Source of the DNA: Actinomycetes bacterium
GTDB lineage: Bacteria > Actinomycetota > Coriobacteriia > Coriobacteriales > Coriobacteriaceae
Length of the DNA: 5,192 nucleotides
Direction: 5' to 3'
Assembly (NCBI GenBank): GCA_023441725.1
Contig: JAEZNV010000159.1
Location: forward strand, 1 to 5,192
Every line of letters begins with the position of its first letter. The stretch's first letter is position 1. The notes under the pieces were generated by a model. That model saw only the letters and a program-made list of their open reading frames with translations, searched no databases and had not been told where the DNA came from. The translations under genes were made by a program, and so were the position numbers. Shown here piece after piece: positions 792 to 5,192 of the stretch.

Positions 792-1538
792 ATGGAAAAG
801 CTGGGAGTTATCGGCGGCATGGGCGCCGAGGCCACGTCGTATTACTACGACCAGGTGGTACGTCATACGGCGGCTACCTGTGATCAGGAGCATATCGACA
901 TGGTGGTGCTTTCCAAGTCGACCATGCCTGACCGCACGCTGGCCATCAAGACCGGCGAGCATGCCGAGCTGTTGACGACCATGAAGGAGTGCGCTCAGGC
1001 GCTCGAGTCGCTGGGCTGCGCGCACATAGCGATTCCCTGCCACACGTCACACTACTTCTACGACCAGCTCCAGTCGTTTACGAAGGTGCCGATTATCCAC
1101 ATGCCGCGCGAGTCGGTGCGCTATGCTCTGGCGGGCGCGGTGATGGGGGAGTGCGAGTTCGACCCCAACCTGAGTATGCCGGCCGAGCCGGTGCGCAAGA
1201 TCGGCATCATGGGCACCGACGGTACCGTGGGCGCAGACGTCTATGGGCGCGAATGTGAGACCGCGGGCGTTGAGGTCGTCTATCCCAGCGAAAAGCGTCA
1301 GGCCGACGTGATGTCGCTCATCTACGACGATGTGAAGGCCGGGCGCGAACCCGATATGGACAAGTTCGACCGCGTGATGTGGGAGTTCGCCCGTAGCGGC
1401 TGCGACCGCATCATCCTGGCCTGCACGGAGCTTTCGGTGTTGCAGAAGTATCGCGAGATGCCCGAGATCACCCTCGATGCGATGGATGTCCTGGTACGCG
1501 AGTCCATCATTCGCAGCGGCGTCCCCTACCGCCTGTAG
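792..1538 (+). CDS. Aspartate/glutamate racemase family protein, probable aspartate racemase
   Basis: This 248-aa protein is of normal length for the PLP-independent Asp/Glu racemase family, which inverts the alpha carbon with two cysteines acting as acid/base from opposite faces. Visible features: N-terminal GVIGGMGAEAT (5-15), first catalytic motif IPCHTSHYF (81-89, C83), HMPRESV (103-109), second-half nucleus KIGIMGTDGT (136-145), and second catalytic motif ACTELSVL (210-217, C211). Both cysteines are present, so activity is expected. The usual CNTxH of the first motif reads CHTSH here, a substitution at the Asn next to the catalytic Cys. It is cytosolic with no signal peptide. The gene lies 84 bases after an ATP-grasp ligase on the same strand, suggesting that it makes the D-amino acid (probably D-Asp) that the ligase installs in peptidoglycan. 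The family call is strong. The Asp rather than Glu substrate rests on overall motif style and context. Confidence 0.85.
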   Translation: MEKLGVIGGMGAEATSYYYDQVVRHTAATCDQEHIDMVVLSKSTMPDRTLAIKTGEHAELLTTMKECAQALESLGCAHIAIPCHTSHYFYDQLQSFTKVPIIHMPRESVRYALAGAVMGECEFDPNLSMPAEPVRKIGIMGTDGTVGADVYGRECETAGVEVVYPSEKRQADVMSLIYDDVKAGREPDMDKFDRVMWEFARSGCDRIILACTELSVLQKYREMPEITLDAMDVLVRESIIRSGVPYRL

Positions 1539-1662: not shown

Positions 1663-2409
1663 CTAGAACAGGAAGCCGATGGCAATAAGGGCGATGCTGA
1701 CGATAAGTACGGCGATATCCAGGCCTTTGATGGGGTAACGCTTATACGAACTCGCGCGCGTGCGCAGGTAGAAGCCGCGCTGCTCGGCGGCAAGCGCGGT
1801 GGCATCGGTCTTGCCCACGCTCGAGATAAGCAGTGGCACGCACAGCGGCAGCATGAGCTTGAGTTTCTTGACGGGATTCTTAGTGTCGTATTCGACGCCG
1901 CGTGCAGTCTGCGCCTCCATGATGGCGTTCATTTCCTGGCCAAATACCGGCACAAAGCGCAGCGCCGTGGTAAAGGTGAAGGCATAGCGATATGGCACGT
2001 GCAGCACCTCGACGCAGGCGTTGGCGAGGTCGTTGAGCTTGGTCACCATAAGCATGAGGATGAGTGGCAGCGCCACGCCCAACAGGCGTAGACAAGCCTT
2101 CGATCCGGTGATGAGGCCCGTGTCGGTGATAAAGCCCCACACTATGTTGCCGTCGCGCATAAAGGCCAGCTGAAGTACCAGCATGAAAAGCGCGAGCGGA
2201 ATCAGCAGCTTGAGTAGCGAAAGCAGACGGTCGATGACGCCGGCGTAGGCGCCCAGTGCAAGGGTGAGCGCCAAAAAGCCCAACAGCGCCACGTAGGTAT
2301 CGGACAGGAAGATGCCGATGATGATGGCGGCGGCGAGGCCCAGTTTGACGACCGGGTTCAAGCGGTGCAGCAGTGTATCGCCCGGCATGTAGTCGATGAC
2401 GTTAACCAC
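1663..2409 (-). CDS. ecfT: ECF transporter transmembrane component EcfT
   Basis: EcfT is the integral membrane scaffold that couples the two ATPases to the substrate-binding S subunit in ECF importers. The 248-aa protein is of usual size. Hydrophobic segments lie near residues 21-55 (probably two helices), 60-84, 105-124, 140-157, 185-197 and 228-248. The two cytosolic coupling-helix signatures are present: EAQTARG (165-171) and AAEQRG (207-212), each with the Arg-Gly that contacts an ATPase. The start is a GTG at 2409-2407, with GAGGAG (2425-2420) 10 bases upstream. It overlaps the end of the ATPase gene by 8 bases, so the two are translationally coupled and form one operon. An in-frame ATG at codon 8 has no comparable ribosome site. 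It is the last gene of the minus-strand group and runs into the terminator region at 1599-1635. Confidence 0.9.
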   Translation of the reverse strand: MVNVIDYMPGDTLLHRLNPVVKLGLAAAIIIGIFLSDTYVALLGFLALTLALGAYAGVIDRLLSLLKLLIPLALFMLVLQLAFMRDGNIVWGFITDTGLITGSKACLRLLGVALPLILMLMVTKLNDLANACVEVLHVPYRYAFTFTTALRFVPVFGQEMNAIMEAQTARGVEYDTKNPVKKLKLMLPLCVPLLISSVGKTDATALAAEQRGFYLRTRASSYKRYPIKGLDIAVLIVSIALIAIGFLF

Positions 2410-4153
2410 GGTGGACCATCTCCTCGGTAATGCGAACGATATCGGTGACCTCGCTCACCTGTGCAAAGGCGGGAGAGACAGAGGATGCTAGGCGACGAGA
2501 AAGCTCTATGACCTGGGGTGGCTCAACGTAGGCTCGCTGCATGAGCTCGATGTTCGAGAACAGCTCGTGCGTGCGGCCGCGGTCGAGGATGCGGCCGTCG
2601 GCCATCACCACGATGCGCTCGGCAAAGTCAGAGACGACTTCCATGTCGTGGCAGACCATGATTACAGCGCAGCCGCGCTCGGCCATGGTGCGCACGGTTT
2701 CCATGACGGTCATGCACTCGCGGTAGTCAAGGCCGCTCGTGGGCTCGTCGAGCACCACGATTTTGGGCTCTACGACTACGACGGAGGCGAGTGCCACCAT
2801 CTGGCGCTGACCACGCGAGAGCGAGAAGGGCGCCTCGTCGGCCGGCAAGCCAAAGCGGTCGATGACGAGTTGGGCGCGACGCAGTGCCTCGGCACGGTCG
2901 ATGCCGGCAAGCTCCAAGCCAAAGGCGACCTCGTCGAGCACGGTGTCCTTGCAGATCTGGCGGTCGGGGTTTTGGAAGAGCGTAGCGCCCTCGCGGGCGA
3001 TACGGCTCGTGGCGACGGCTGCGGTATCCAGTCCCGTGACGCGCACGCTGCCCGAGGCGGGCTTAAGCAGGCCTGTGAGCAGCTTGGTAAGTGTGGTCTT
3101 GCCGGCGCCGTTTTGGCCGACGATGCCCACGAGCTCGCCGGGATAGAGGGTCAGGTTGAGGTCGTGGACGGCGGCGCCGCCATTGGGATAGGCAAACTCA
3201 ACGTGATCGAAGGCGAGCACGGGCTCGGCGTCCTTGGCGTGCGGGCGCAACGACGGTGCGTGCGGTGAGCCGGCGGGTGCCTGAGTGTCGCTGTTTGCGT
3301 GTGCGGGGTCGACGATGCCCGTAATCAGGCGCTCGGCCTCATCAACATCCAAACAGGGAGTGCCGCTGGCCAGGCCATCGGCCTCGAGGCTGTTGAAAAT
3401 GCGCGTGACACGCGGGCAATCGACGCCGATGGCGCGGAGCTCATCGGTGTGCGCGAAGACCTCGTGCGGCTTGCCCTGTAGCGCGATTTCGCCATGATTG
3501 AGCACGAGCACGCGGTTGCAATACTCCGAAAGCAGGGCGACTTTTTGCTCAACGACAACGATGGTGATGCCGAGTGCACGGTTGGCCTCACGCAGGGTCT
3601 CGAAGACCAGCGTGGAGCTGGCGGGGTCGAGCGCCGCGGTGGGTTCGTCGAGCACGAGCACGCGCGGACGCATGGCGAGGATGGCGGCGATGGCAACCTT
3701 TTGCTTTTGGCCGCCCGAAAGCGTGGGGATCTCGCGGTCGCGCAGGTCGCTGATACCGACGGTCTTAAGCGTCTCGCTCAAGCGCTGCTCGATCTGGTCG
3801 TGCGGAACGCCAAAGTTCTCGAGGCCAAAGAGCATTTCGTCCTCAACGACCGAAGCGACCATCTGGGTATCGATGTCCTGCAACACGCTGCCGACGATCT
3901 GCGATATGTCGGTGAGCGAGACCTCGCAGGTGTCGTGGCCGTCAACTAACACGGAGCCATAAAAGGCGCCGGTGTAGTGGTGAGGTACGGCGCCCGACAG
4001 ACAGGCGGCAAGTGTGGACTTACCGGCGCCCGAAGGCCCGATAATGCCGATATAATCTCCCCTGTTCACGCCGAGCGAGATATGCTTAAGCGCCTGCTCG
4101 GTCTGCGTGCCATAGGAGAACGAGACATCGTCGACGTTGATGATCGTTTCCAT
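2402..4153 (-). CDS. ecfA: ECF transporter ATPase, two fused ABC domains (EcfA-EcfA')
   Basis: This 583-aa protein carries both ATP-binding subunits of an ECF importer in one chain. Domain 1 (about 1-280) has Walker A GPSGAGKST (39-47), Q-loop Q92, signature LSGGQKQ (145-151) and Walker B VLVLDEP (165-171, catalytic E170), but its H-loop position reads VVEQK with Gln203 in place of His. A linker rich in Ala, Pro, Ser and His spans about 283-310. Domain 2 has Walker A GQNGAGKTT (346-354), Q394, signature LSRGQRQ (445-451), Walker B IVVLDEP (465-471, E470) and a normal H-loop His502. The domains are thus unequal, as in ABC transporters with one degenerate and one consensus ATP site. The ATG at 4153 has AAAGG five bases upstream. 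ecfT follows with an 8-base overlap. The S-component gene lies 212 bases upstream on the same strand, suggesting a dedicated (group I) ECF system, although the ATPase/EcfT module could also serve other S subunits elsewhere. Confidence 0.93.
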   Translation of the reverse strand: METIINVDDVSFSYGTQTEQALKHISLGVNRGDYIGIIGPSGAGKSTLAACLSGAVPHHYTGAFYGSVLVDGHDTCEVSLTDISQIVGSVLQDIDTQMVASVVEDEMLFGLENFGVPHDQIEQRLSETLKTVGISDLRDREIPTLSGGQKQKVAIAAILAMRPRVLVLDEPTAALDPASSTLVFETLREANRALGITIVVVEQKVALLSEYCNRVLVLNHGEIALQGKPHEVFAHTDELRAIGVDCPRVTRIFNSLEADGLASGTPCLDVDEAERLITGIVDPAHANSDTQAPAGSPHAPSLRPHAKDAEPVLAFDHVEFAYPNGGAAVHDLNLTLYPGELVGIVGQNGAGKTTLTKLLTGLLKPASGSVRVTGLDTAAVATSRIAREGATLFQNPDRQICKDTVLDEVAFGLELAGIDRAEALRRAQLVIDRFGLPADEAPFSLSRGQRQMVALASVVVVEPKIVVLDEPTSGLDYRECMTVMETVRTMAERGCAVIMVCHDMEVVSDFAERIVVMADGRILDRGRTHELFSNIELMQRAYVEPPQVIELSRRLASSVSPAFAQVSEVTDIVRITEEMVHRG

Positions 4154-4171: not shown

Positions 4172-4215
4172 TTGGGGACGTTCTTACATGACTAGTCGTT
4201 TAAGAACGTCCCCAA
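4172..4215. repeat. Perfect 15-bp palindrome just upstream of the ATPase gene, REP-like
   Basis: TTGGGGACGTTCTTA (4172-4186) and TAAGAACGTCCCCAA (4201-4215) are exact reverse complements around a 14-base loop. The loop itself contains the 8-bp palindrome GACTAGTC (4190-4197). The element ends about 8 bases before the ribosome site of the ATPase gene on the minus strand. No T-run follows on either strand, so it is not a standard terminator. It could be a dispersed repetitive palindrome, a regulator binding site, or an mRNA stem in the operon message. Confidence 0.75.
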
Positions 4216-4365: not shown

Positions 4366-4938
4366 TTAGTTGAGCTTAAGGGACTTCTGGATGGGCAGGT
4401 AGAGAGCGCCGACCAGGATGGCGTTAAAGACGGCGGTCATGGCGACGACGGGCAGCATGGCAGCGGCGAGCTCGCTCACCACGCCGAGCATGGCCATCTT
4501 GATGACCATGAAGATGACGCCCGAGACAAAGGTGGTCACGAAGGCTGCGACGATGGCGACGGCGGGCTTAACCTGGCCGTCCTTGGCGGCAGCGTTGACA
4601 ATGACGGCCATGAGCATGGCAGCGATGCCCTCGGCGGCAAAATCGACAAACGGCGAGGTGGTGGTGATCTGGATCACGGCGGCCGAGATCAGGCCGATGA
4701 CGAGTGCCTGACCGATGTTGGGGCGCACGACCAGGATAGTGAGGCAGAAGGCCGAGATAATGAACTCGGGGCTGATCATACCGCCCGAGATGCCGGAGAT
4801 AGCCTTGCCGACGGTGAAGTTGAGGATGAAGCCAGCGGCAAGCAGGATGGCGAGCAAGACAAGGGCACGGACGTCGAGTTTGCCGCGGTCGGCGGTCTGG
4901 ACGGTGCGGGGCTGGGCGGTGGTGGTGTTCTGAGACAT
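4366..4938 (-). CDS. trpP: ECF transporter S component, TrpP-like, probable tryptophan-specific subunit
   Basis: S components are small membrane proteins that bind the substrate and dock on EcfT. This 190-aa protein has a polar N-terminus (1-22), then hydrophobic segments near 24-42, 58-72, 76-93, 100-118, 125-148 and 155-182, about six helices. The stretch from GGMISPEF (52-59) through GQALVIGLISA (76-86) to ITTTSPFVD (91-99) resembles the TrpP family, recalled as having GGM-P-, GLI-ISA and TT-FP elements in the same order; this was not checked by search. The ATG at 4938 has AAAGGA (4952-4947) eight bases upstream. Upstream is a short ORF with three Trp codons followed by a terminator, independent evidence that expression responds to tryptophan. 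The ATPase and EcfT genes follow on the same strand. The S-component call is strong; the tryptophan substrate is probable. Other aromatic or indole compounds are the main alternatives. Confidence 0.82.
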   Translation of the reverse strand: MSQNTTTAQPRTVQTADRGKLDVRALVLLAILLAAGFILNFTVGKAISGISGGMISPEFIISAFCLTILVVRPNIGQALVIGLISAAVIQITTTSPFVDFAAEGIAAMLMAVIVNAAAKDGQVKPAVAIVAAFVTTFVSGVIFMVIKMAMLGVVSELAAAMLPVVAMTAVFNAILVGALYLPIQKSLKLN

Positions 4939-4985
4939 GGTGAAAATCCTTTCGGAGGGGAAGTGAAAGAGAAGAAAGCGGAGGC

Positions 4986-5115
4986 GCGCGATGCGAATGC
5001 GATCGGGCTCGAGATAGAAAAAGGCCCCCGGTCGAAACCGGAGGCCTTCTAATCACCTAGAGCGCAAAAACAGGTGTGAGGGACTCACCGTCGACCGATC
5101 GTATTCGCATCACGC
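4986..5115. repeat. Near-perfect 21-position inverted repeat enclosing the attenuator
   Basis: Bases 4986-5006 and 5095-5115 are reverse complements at 19 of 21 positions. In the minus-strand RNA, 4989/5112 becomes a G-U wobble, so 20 of 21 can pair; only 4999/5102 (C/A) fails. The upstream arm lies in the leader ORF right after the Trp codons, and the downstream arm lies past the terminator, between it and the S-component ribosome site. Such a long match in an 80-base loop is very unlikely by chance. It could form only after readthrough of the terminator. Confidence 0.75.
5018..5048 (-). terminator. Intrinsic terminator in the leader of the ECF operon (attenuator)
   Basis: Read on the minus strand, AAGGCCTCCGGT (5048-5037) pairs with ACCGGGGGCCTT (5032-5021): 12 positions with one U-G wobble, a UUCG loop, then a U-run from 5022 to 5018. 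The hairpin begins 36 bases after the leader ORF stop and the U-run ends 79 bases before the S-component start. A terminator this strong, directed at the operon it precedes, must be overcome for expression, which is the sign of an attenuator. On the plus strand no T-run follows. Confidence 0.9.
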
Positions 5116-5153
5116 CACCACCAGTTGTTGAGAGACTTCATCGTGTTCTTCAT
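5085..5153 (-). CDS. Tryptophan leader peptide (22 aa)
   Basis: The ATG at 5153-5151 follows AAAGGAG (5168-5162) with an 8-base spacer, a better ribosome site than most genes in the window. The ORF is 22 codons plus TGA (5087-5085). It begins MKNTMKSLNN and then has three consecutive Trp codons (residues 11-13, bases 5123-5115), followed by nine residues rich in Arg, Asp, Asn and Thr. Three adjacent TGG codons in so short an ORF, followed by a terminator, is the pattern of a regulatory leader peptide whose translation senses charged tRNA-Trp. The peptide itself probably has no function. It would be missed by gene callers with normal length cut-offs. Confidence 0.88.
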   Translation of the reverse strand: MKNTMKSLNNWWWRDANTIGRR

Positions 5154-5192
5154 GTTGGTGGCTCCTTTCGTGATGCCGTGGCGCGGTCGCAC

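What the first reader, a model, noticed from the sequence alone, without database searches (positions are those of the whole stretch)
4939..5192. Trp-codon leader ORF and attenuator in front of an ECF-type tryptophan importer
A 22-codon ORF with a strong ribosome site, three adjacent Trp codons and a following intrinsic terminator precedes a TrpP-like S component. Leader-peptide attenuation is classically known for biosynthetic trp operons. The ECF Trp transporters I know from Firmicutes are controlled by TRAP or T-box elements. Ribosome-mediated attenuation of an ECF importer appears uncommon and supports the substrate assignment from regulation alone.
Basis: partly seen in the sequence, partly recalled or inferred. 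Interest (0 to 1): 0.82.

Follow-up and report, generated by a model that had tools for sequence, protein, structure and literature searches.

The report
Tryptophan-sensing switch before tryptophan importer
A short tryptophan-rich mini-gene and an RNA hairpin in front of a gut bacterium's probable tryptophan importer most likely form a switch that turns import on when tryptophan runs short, and related bacteria carry the same kind of switch on other genes for obtaining tryptophan.

Summary
On the minus strand, a 22-codon ORF (5153-5085; MKNTMKSLNNWWWRDANTIGRR) with a strong ribosome site and a terminator (5049-5018) precede a TrpP-like ECF S component, a fused EcfA1A2 and an EcfT. All 79 relatives with readable upstream DNA have the leader, 78 with WWW. 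An element mostly 15-18 nt after the last Trp codon (CGGUC) pairs with the terminator's loop and 3' arm (GACCG). Its codons are constrained at RNA level (Gly GGT in 63 of 63) and it covaries on other genes. Predicted nascent folds switch from antiterminator (ribosome at Trp) to terminator (ribosome at stop): ribosome-mediated attenuation. Beyond the finding, the same attenuator precedes a TrpB-like enzyme (34 of 72 regions) and an SNF-family transporter (6 of 24). The model hits 95 of 246 genomes of the class; only 4 of these 95 have canonical TrpB and the same 4 indole-glycerol-phosphate synthase. It looks like a tryptophan-acquisition regulon of likely Trp auxotrophs. Expression was not tested and phylogeny not corrected for. 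A new variant of a known kind.

The parts
5162..5168 (-). Shine-Dalgarno AAAGGAG of the leader ORF
   Evidence: sequence; a purine-rich ribosome site was required for, and found with, the leader in 79 of 79 relatives
5085..5153 (-). 22-codon leader ORF MKNTMKSLNNWWWRDANTIGRR*
   Evidence: present in 79 of 79 relatives with readable upstream DNA
5115..5123 (-). three adjacent Trp codons TGG TGG TGG (sensor)
   Evidence: sequence; WWW in 78 of 79 relatives, WW in L068
5110..5116 (-). segment 1 GGCGUGA, pairs with segment 2 (and in Coriobacteriaceae-type loci with segment 5)
   Evidence: 89.7% of cells paired over 39 sequences, 14 cells changed on both sides (0 of 500 shuffles)
5091..5097 (-). 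antiterminator element CGGUCGA, pairs with 5029-5035
   Evidence: 99.1% of cells paired but not above shuffles, being nearly invariant; Gly codon GGT in 63 of 63 distinct leaders; covaries in TrpB-like leaders
5080..5086 (-). GAGUCCC, inner part of the predicted antiterminator; pairs imperfectly with the terminator 5' arm
   Evidence: MFE fold of the stalled state
5073..5079 (-). segment 2 UCACACC (UCACGCC in most C. aerofaciens-type relatives), pairs with segment 1; one mismatch in the window
5018..5049 (-). intrinsic terminator hairpin and T-tract; loop and 3' arm UCGACCG 5035-5029 pairs with the antiterminator element
   Evidence: hairpin -23.2 kcal/mol
4980..4998 (-). segment 5, post-terminator element AUUCGCAUCGCGC-GCCUCC, 13 bp complementary to the leader just after the Trp codons
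   Evidence: above permutation in 28 Coriobacteriaceae-type loci, not in 34 others
4366..4938 (-). TrpP-like ECF S component
2402..4153 (-). fused EcfA1-EcfA2 ATPase
1663..2409 (-). EcfT-like transmembrane component (CbiQ family)

Best explanation
A Trp-responsive, ribosome-mediated transcription attenuator of an ECF-type tryptophan importer. With enough charged tRNA-Trp the leader ribosome runs to the stop codon and covers the CGGUC element, so the terminator folds and importer transcription stops. When charged tRNA-Trp is short the ribosome stalls at WWW and leaves CGGUC (17 nt downstream in the window) free. CGGUC then pairs with the terminator's loop and 3' arm (GACCG), and GAGUCC with its 5' arm, giving an antiterminator and read-through into trpP-ecfA1A2-ecfT. 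Shown: the anatomy, its conservation, covariation across genes, and the predicted fold switch. Inferred: ribosome stalling, transcription termination and Trp as substrate. The same switch is inferred to run a Trp-acquisition regulon (ECF importer, TrpB-like enzyme, SNF-family transporter) in Coriobacteriia, mostly ones lacking TrpB, TrpA and IGPS.
For: Leader in 79 of 79 relatives. The element:terminator helix is 99.1% paired in 39 leaders. RNA-level constraint: Gly GGT in 63 of 63 and the next codon the rare Arg CGA in 49 of 63 distinct leaders (S-gene background GGT 68 of 1077 Gly, CGA 7 of 322 Arg); in 4 of 5 distinct SNF-family leaders the element lies beyond the stop codon. In TrpB-like leaders its sequence differs with matching terminators (CCCGGGTCTC:GAGATCCGGG, TCGGATTATCGG:TCGATAATCCGA, GGTAGGTTATCGA:TCGGTAATCTACC); matched pairs beat all 200 permutations for TrpP (19.2 v 18.6, small), TrpB-like (21.9 v 18.2) and all 89 together. 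The helix starts mostly 15-18 nt after Trp although the stop codon ends anywhere from +12 to +30. Stalled-state folds lacking the last 6 nt of the hairpin pair element and terminator in 83 of 89 unique loci against 343 of 890 with shuffled elements. Segment 1:2 covaries. Regulon: TrpB-like gene 34 of 44 regions in one group, SNF-family 6 of 24. R1 model in 95 of 246 genomes: TrpB in 4 of 95 v 78 of 151, IGPS 4 of 95 v 73 of 151, TrpA 7 of 95 v 78 of 151 (Fisher p 1e-16 to 6e-14).
Against: No expression data. At full length the terminator wins in 53 of 54 TrpP folds, and for the window already when 4 nt are missing, so the switch must be kinetic. At the 8-nt cut even shuffled elements pair in 534 of 890 (true elements 86 of 89). 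Within TrpP leaders the element helix does not exceed shuffles. Permutations and Fisher tests are not corrected for phylogeny or genome completeness. The window's own 1:2 helix has a mismatch, and RNAalifold's consensus for A2 proposed other leader pairs. Without a ribosome the antiterminator is still predicted in 28 of 54 TrpP and 23 of 30 TrpB-like loci at the 6-nt cut, so the basal state is unclear. In 14 loci around canonical TrpB no such leader was detected, nor in 28 further TrpB-like loci. Substrate specificity rests on a weak Pfam match plus regulation.
Confidence: 0.87

Rival explanations
1. Translation-level or Rho-based control: the leader is translated in response to Trp, but the output is access to the trpP ribosome site or Rho loading rather than intrinsic termination.
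For: Segment 5 lies shortly before the trpP SD and pairs with the leader in Coriobacteriaceae-type loci.
Against: A GC-rich hairpin core with a T-run is kept in 79 of 79 relatives, and the covarying element targets that hairpin, not the trpP SD. Segment 5 pairing is not above permutation in 34 other loci, which keep leader and terminator.
Confidence: 0.08
2. TnaC-like control: free tryptophan stalls the ribosome on the leader peptide and induces the operon when Trp is abundant.
For: TnaC shows that Trp-responsive leaders can induce (recalled; PMC8429421, start of abstract in the listing).
Against: The peptide outside WWW varies between gene types, whereas RNA elements are conserved at silent sites. 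An importer and a Trp-making enzyme in organisms without TrpB would be expected to rise on starvation. Adjacent Trp codons fit codon starvation.
Confidence: 0.03
3. The leader ORF is incidental; the terminator is constitutive and only sets the basal level.
For: Intrinsic terminators occur in many 5' UTRs (general knowledge; survey PMC2965389, passages).
Against: WWW or WW with a ribosome site in 79 of 79 relatives, near-fixed Trp-to-element spacing and recurrence on three Trp-related gene types.
Confidence: 0.02

Closest known systems
trp operon attenuators of Corynebacterium and Streptomyces (PMC1262725; first of three parts read, plus passages)
   Same: Leader ORF with two or three adjacent UGG codons, GC-rich terminator with a T-tract, alternative antiterminator; actinobacterial. 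One predicted target is a trpB2A operon of C. diphtheriae
   Different: There the targets are biosynthetic operons and a trpS; 'coriobact' and 'permease' do not occur in the text and 'transport' only in references. Here the targets are an importer, a TrpB-like gene and an SNF-family transporter, and the element pairs mainly with the terminator loop and 3' arm
Histidine leader-peptide attenuators in Gram-positive bacteria (PMC9413887, passages)
   Same: T-box and/or predicted attenuator control of the his operon and/or the hisZYX transporter; in the His-auxotroph Collinsella intestinalis only the transporter and hisR remain in the (HisR) regulon, a parallel to acquisition-only control here
   Different: Histidine, ABC transporter, attenuators in Firmicutes; Coriobacteriales there use the HisR repressor
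E. coli trpL attenuator (recalled)
   Same: Ribosome position on Trp codons chooses terminator or antiterminator
   Different: Different genes; E. coli antiterminator is 2:3, here element:3' arm plus a weaker inner helix with the 5' arm
trpP of Bacillus subtilis under TRAP, and Trp T-boxes in Firmicutes (recalled)
   Same: Regulated tryptophan importer
   Different: Protein- or tRNA-binding RNA, no leader peptide; no T-box found in the window
BmrCD and mgtCBR leaders (PMC4191407, PMC3641672; listing abstracts only)
   Same: Transporter genes under ribosome-linked attenuation
   Different: Antibiotic or (recalled) Mg signals, not the cognate amino acid

Membership tests
Ribosome-mediated (leader-peptide) transcription attenuator | Translatable short ORF with runs of the cognate codon | tested here: met
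   79 of 79 relatives, 78 WWW; translation itself not tested
Ribosome-mediated (leader-peptide) transcription attenuator | Intrinsic terminator between leader ORF and gene | tested here: met
Ribosome-mediated (leader-peptide) transcription attenuator | Mutually exclusive antiterminator exposed only when the ribosome stalls at the regulatory codons | tested here: met
   by prediction and covariation only; the no-ribosome state is ambiguous
Ribosome-mediated (leader-peptide) transcription attenuator | Expression responds to charging of the cognate tRNA | not testable with these tools
   needs RNA or reporter data
TrpP-type ECF S component | PF17099 above gathering score | tested here: inconclusive
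   23.2 bits against 27.2; precomputed PF17099 in many of 120 listed relatives; 27.4 bits for a fragment of a relative in L127
TrpP-type ECF S component | S-component fold | tested here: inconclusive
   ranks 1-4 are ECF S components (3p5n, 3rlb, 4muu, 4rfs; probability 0.91-1.00, TM about 0.5) but E is 0.07-0.4 and no match has E <= 0.001; model pLDDT 66
TrpP-type ECF S component | Beside ECF ATPase and T component | tested here: met
TrpP-type ECF S component | Transports tryptophan | not testable with these tools
   inferred from regulation
Rfam families (incl. T-box) | Match to a curated model | tested here: not met
   window: four matches, all below the gathering score; 18 attenuator loci: only a tRNA and an SRP RNA

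The most novel reading that the evidence does not exclude
Coriobacteriia run a dedicated tryptophan-acquisition regulon (ECF importer, SNF-family transporter, TrpB-like enzyme for indole salvage) by leader-peptide attenuators that recur on unlinked genes, kept or spread after loss of the biosynthetic pathway. In the Coriobacteriaceae type the switch has a second layer: an element made only in read-through RNA pairs with the leader beside the Trp codons and may shut off leader translation or shield the full-length mRNA.
Probability: 0.4. Interest if true: 0.75.

Novelty: new variant of a known kind. Interest (0 to 1): 0.6.

Why it matters
It gives a regulation-based substrate for an importer that sequence alone labels weakly, and shows classical attenuation serving acquisition in organisms that mostly lack TrpB, TrpA and IGPS. 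It also names two more genes under the same control, so the tryptophan economy of common gut commensals (Collinsella, Olsenella and kin) becomes testable by RNA-seq under tryptophan limitation. Three papers bear on the setting: predicted histidine attenuators on transporters (PMC9413887, passages), indole salvage by gut bifidobacteria (PMC11085991, listing abstract) and actinobacterial trp attenuators (PMC1262725, part 1 of 3 and passages).

Tried and rejected
C. glutamicum TrpP as a precedent: rejected. It is said to resemble SdpI and not to be a transporter (PMC11995493, passages). Known Rfam element: none reached threshold. The same leader around canonical TrpB (trp biosynthesis): none detected in 14 loci (the detector needs WW or WxW and a hairpin); Rfam on 10 of those 14 gave one T-box and one TPP. 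Weak R1 hits L150, L152 (tRNA-like), L153 and L157 (5S-like) were set aside by eye. RNAalifold's automatic consensus for A2 was not used as evidence, though R1 was built on it. PDB sequence search with A1: 0 matches. Plasmid search: no match. PMC6593275 (passages) says nothing on Trp in Collinsella.

Negative or weak results: TrpB-like leader absent in 10 of the 40 regions L232-L271; three of the ten (L238, L258, L269) may be badly placed, since no start motif was found there. Absent in 28 of 28 usable regions of L172-L201 (2 of 30 had too little upstream); 29 of those 30 genomes have canonical TrpB. SNF-family leader absent in 18 of 24 usable loci; 6 of 30 had no start motif. First SNF-family scans and the first scan of L172-L201 missed minus-strand genes and were redone on both strands. 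Segment 5 pairing is above permutation only in 28 loci that I picked by hand as Coriobacteriaceae-type, not in 34 others; 12 close C. aerofaciens-type rows of the 74 were left out. The strict pattern has at least five forward hits (G051, G066, G084, G116, G183) that look like coding DNA, and at least one R1 hit (G197) is a tRNA.

No paper found describing these attenuators: searches in an open-licence library; several lists were capped (one search showed 10 of 319), and subscription journals are missing.

Full report
What is there. The window's minus strand carries, in order, a Shine-Dalgarno (5168-5162), a 22-codon ORF with three adjacent Trp codons (5153-5085), a GC-rich hairpin with a T-tract (5049-5018), an S component (4938-4366), a fused ECF ATPase (4153-2402) and a CbiQ-family T component (2409-1663). 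The DNA before 5192 is not in the window, so the promoter is not seen. No whole genome is held for it. The closest relatives found are Collinsella.

Conservation. One genome scan with the S-component alignment gave 80 loci, the best 80 of 105 (Collinsella, Olsenella, Enorma, Thermophilibacter, Slackia and kin). L073 was dropped because only 33 nt lie upstream. All 79 others have a Trp leader ORF with a ribosome site, 78 with WWW and one with WW, and a conserved terminator-like core with a T-run.

Anatomy of the switch. Three pairings stand out. First, segment 1 (GGCGUGA, just after the Trp codons) with segment 2 (UCACGCC, after the stop): 89.7% of cells paired in 39 sequences, 14 cells changed on both sides, 0 of 500 shuffles as many. 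Second, the element CGGUC with GACCG in the terminator loop and 3' arm: 99.1% paired. It is nearly invariant among TrpP leaders, so it does not beat the shuffles in that test. Third, the terminator itself. The element is held at RNA level: Gly is GGT in 63 of 63 distinct leaders and the next codon CGA in 49 of 63, although GGT is 68 of 1077 Gly codons and CGA 7 of 322 Arg codons in the S genes.

Covariation across genes. A covariance model hit 16 of 16 genomes tested (16 of the 80 loci's genomes) and 95 of 246 genomes of the same class (Coriobacteriia, inferred from the Collinsella records; at least one weak hit, G197, is a tRNA artefact). A strict pattern hit 78 of 246, the reversed pattern 5; at least five forward hits look like coding DNA. 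Weaker model hits led to other genes: a TrpB-like PLP enzyme (NF009057) and an SNF-family transporter (PF00209), besides diverged TrpP. All four TrpB-like genes first met (L081-L084) had WWW leaders; of 40 more regions, 30 had WW or WWW leaders with a hairpin; of 28 usable regions in another group, none. So 34 of 72. There the element changes together with the terminator, for example CCCGGGTCTC with GAGATCCGGG and GGTAGGTTATCGA with TCGGTAATCTACC. Matched element and terminator score above all 200 permutations for TrpP (54 unique; 19.2 against a mean of 18.6), the TrpB-like set (30; 21.9 against 18.2) and all 89; windows upstream of the Trp codons score 12.5. Relatedness is not corrected for. 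The best helix starts 15-18 nt after the last Trp codon in 50 of 54 TrpP, 27 of 30 TrpB-like and 4 of 5 SNF-family leaders, although the stop codon ends anywhere from +12 to +30; in 4 of 5 SNF-family leaders the element lies beyond the stop. A near-fixed distance from the stall site is what ribosome gating predicts.

Predicted switch. For the window, RNA free from +11 after Trp (stalled ribosome), with the last 6 or 8 nt of the hairpin not yet made, folds into the antiterminator; with 4 or fewer missing it already folds into the terminator. RNA free only after the stop codon folds into the terminator. Over 89 unique loci at the 6-nt cut, the stalled state pairs element and terminator in 83, against 343 of 890 with shuffled elements; at the 4-nt cut 53 of 89 against 127 of 890; at the 8-nt cut 86 of 89, but shuffled elements also in 534 of 890. 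At full length the terminator wins in 53 of 54 TrpP loci, so the decision must be kinetic, as in known attenuators. Without any ribosome the antiterminator is still predicted in 28 of 54 TrpP and 23 of 30 TrpB-like loci at the 6-nt cut, so the basal state is unclear.

Physiology. Canonical TrpB (TIGR00263) is over cut-off in 0 of 16 genomes reached through the loci, with 13 of 14 control genomes positive. In the class, of the 95 genomes with the model and the 151 without: TrpB 4 against 78, indole-glycerol-phosphate synthase (PF00218) 4 against 73, the same four genomes, TrpA 7 against 78. Fisher p is 1e-16, 6e-15 and 6e-14, not corrected for phylogeny or incomplete genomes; the other trp genes were not searched, so auxotrophy is likely but inferred. 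Among the 40 TrpB-like regions the leader is present in 28 of 31 without TrpB and 2 of 9 with it (p 2e-4), and 29 of the 30 genomes of the leaderless group have TrpB. No such leader was detected in 14 loci around canonical TrpB. Inference: organisms without de novo synthesis control uptake, and where present indole-to-tryptophan conversion, by sensing charged tRNA-Trp.

Second element. In 28 loci picked by hand as Coriobacteriaceae-type a post-terminator stretch (window 4998-4980) pairs with the leader right after the Trp codons, 8-14 bp, above permutation (0 of 300); in 34 others it is not (100 of 300). Partners change together, as in L077 (GCGTGGTTCTCGTC with GACGAGGGCCACGC). Its role is unknown; it exists only in read-through RNA and may stop leader translation or protect the mRNA.

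Substrate. The S component matches TrpP only below the curated score, but many relatives carry the domain, and the predicted six-helix model (pLDDT 66) has ECF S components in the first four ranks of its PDB matches, at E 0.07-0.4. Regulation shared with a TrpB-like enzyme is the strongest argument for tryptophan.

Known and new. Trp attenuators are known or predicted before trp operons, a trpB2A operon and a trpS in Corynebacterium and Streptomyces (PMC1262725). Predicted histidine attenuators reach a transporter in Firmicutes (PMC9413887, passages). In 2010 leader peptides had been shown only in Proteobacteria and Actinobacteria, as that paper's authors put it (PMC2965389, passages). I found no paper on attenuated ECF tryptophan importers or on Trp attenuators of Coriobacteriia (open-licence library, capped lists). 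I rate it a new variant of a known kind.

Noticed in passing
window 4980-4998 (minus): Conserved post-terminator element (GCAUCACGC-GCCUCC type) pairing with the leader next to the Trp codons in Coriobacteriaceae-type loci; role unknown.
   Followed up: partly
L147, L149, L081-L084, L232-L271: Trp-codon leader attenuators in front of TrpB-like (NF009057) genes of Coriobacteriia (30 of the 40 regions L232-L271).
   Followed up: yes
L127, L133, L135, L140, L141, L143: Same attenuator before an SNF-family (neurotransmitter:sodium symporter) transporter; in L127 an SNF-family copy and a TrpP copy lie about 1.6 kb apart.
   Followed up: partly
window 4172-4215: Perfect 15-bp inverted repeat TTGGGGACGTTCTTA...TAAGAACGTCCCCAA between the S-component and ATPase genes; similar GTCCCC stretches appear upstream of the S gene in L052 and L057.
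   Followed up: no
L145 (leader at the R1 hit): A TrpP leader in which WWW is replaced by W-A-W (...AAWAWRDACPLGRD*, translated by hand), with the terminator and CGGTC element kept.
   Followed up: no
G109 (contig C19): An attenuator-carrying genome with TrpA, only a partial TrpB match beside it and no IGPS match; possibly a decaying pathway or a gap.
   Followed up: no
window 792-1535 (+): Asp/Glu racemase-family gene (best NCBIfam match cysteate racemase CuyB, 172.8 bits against a cut-off of 190) near the ECF operon.
   Followed up: no
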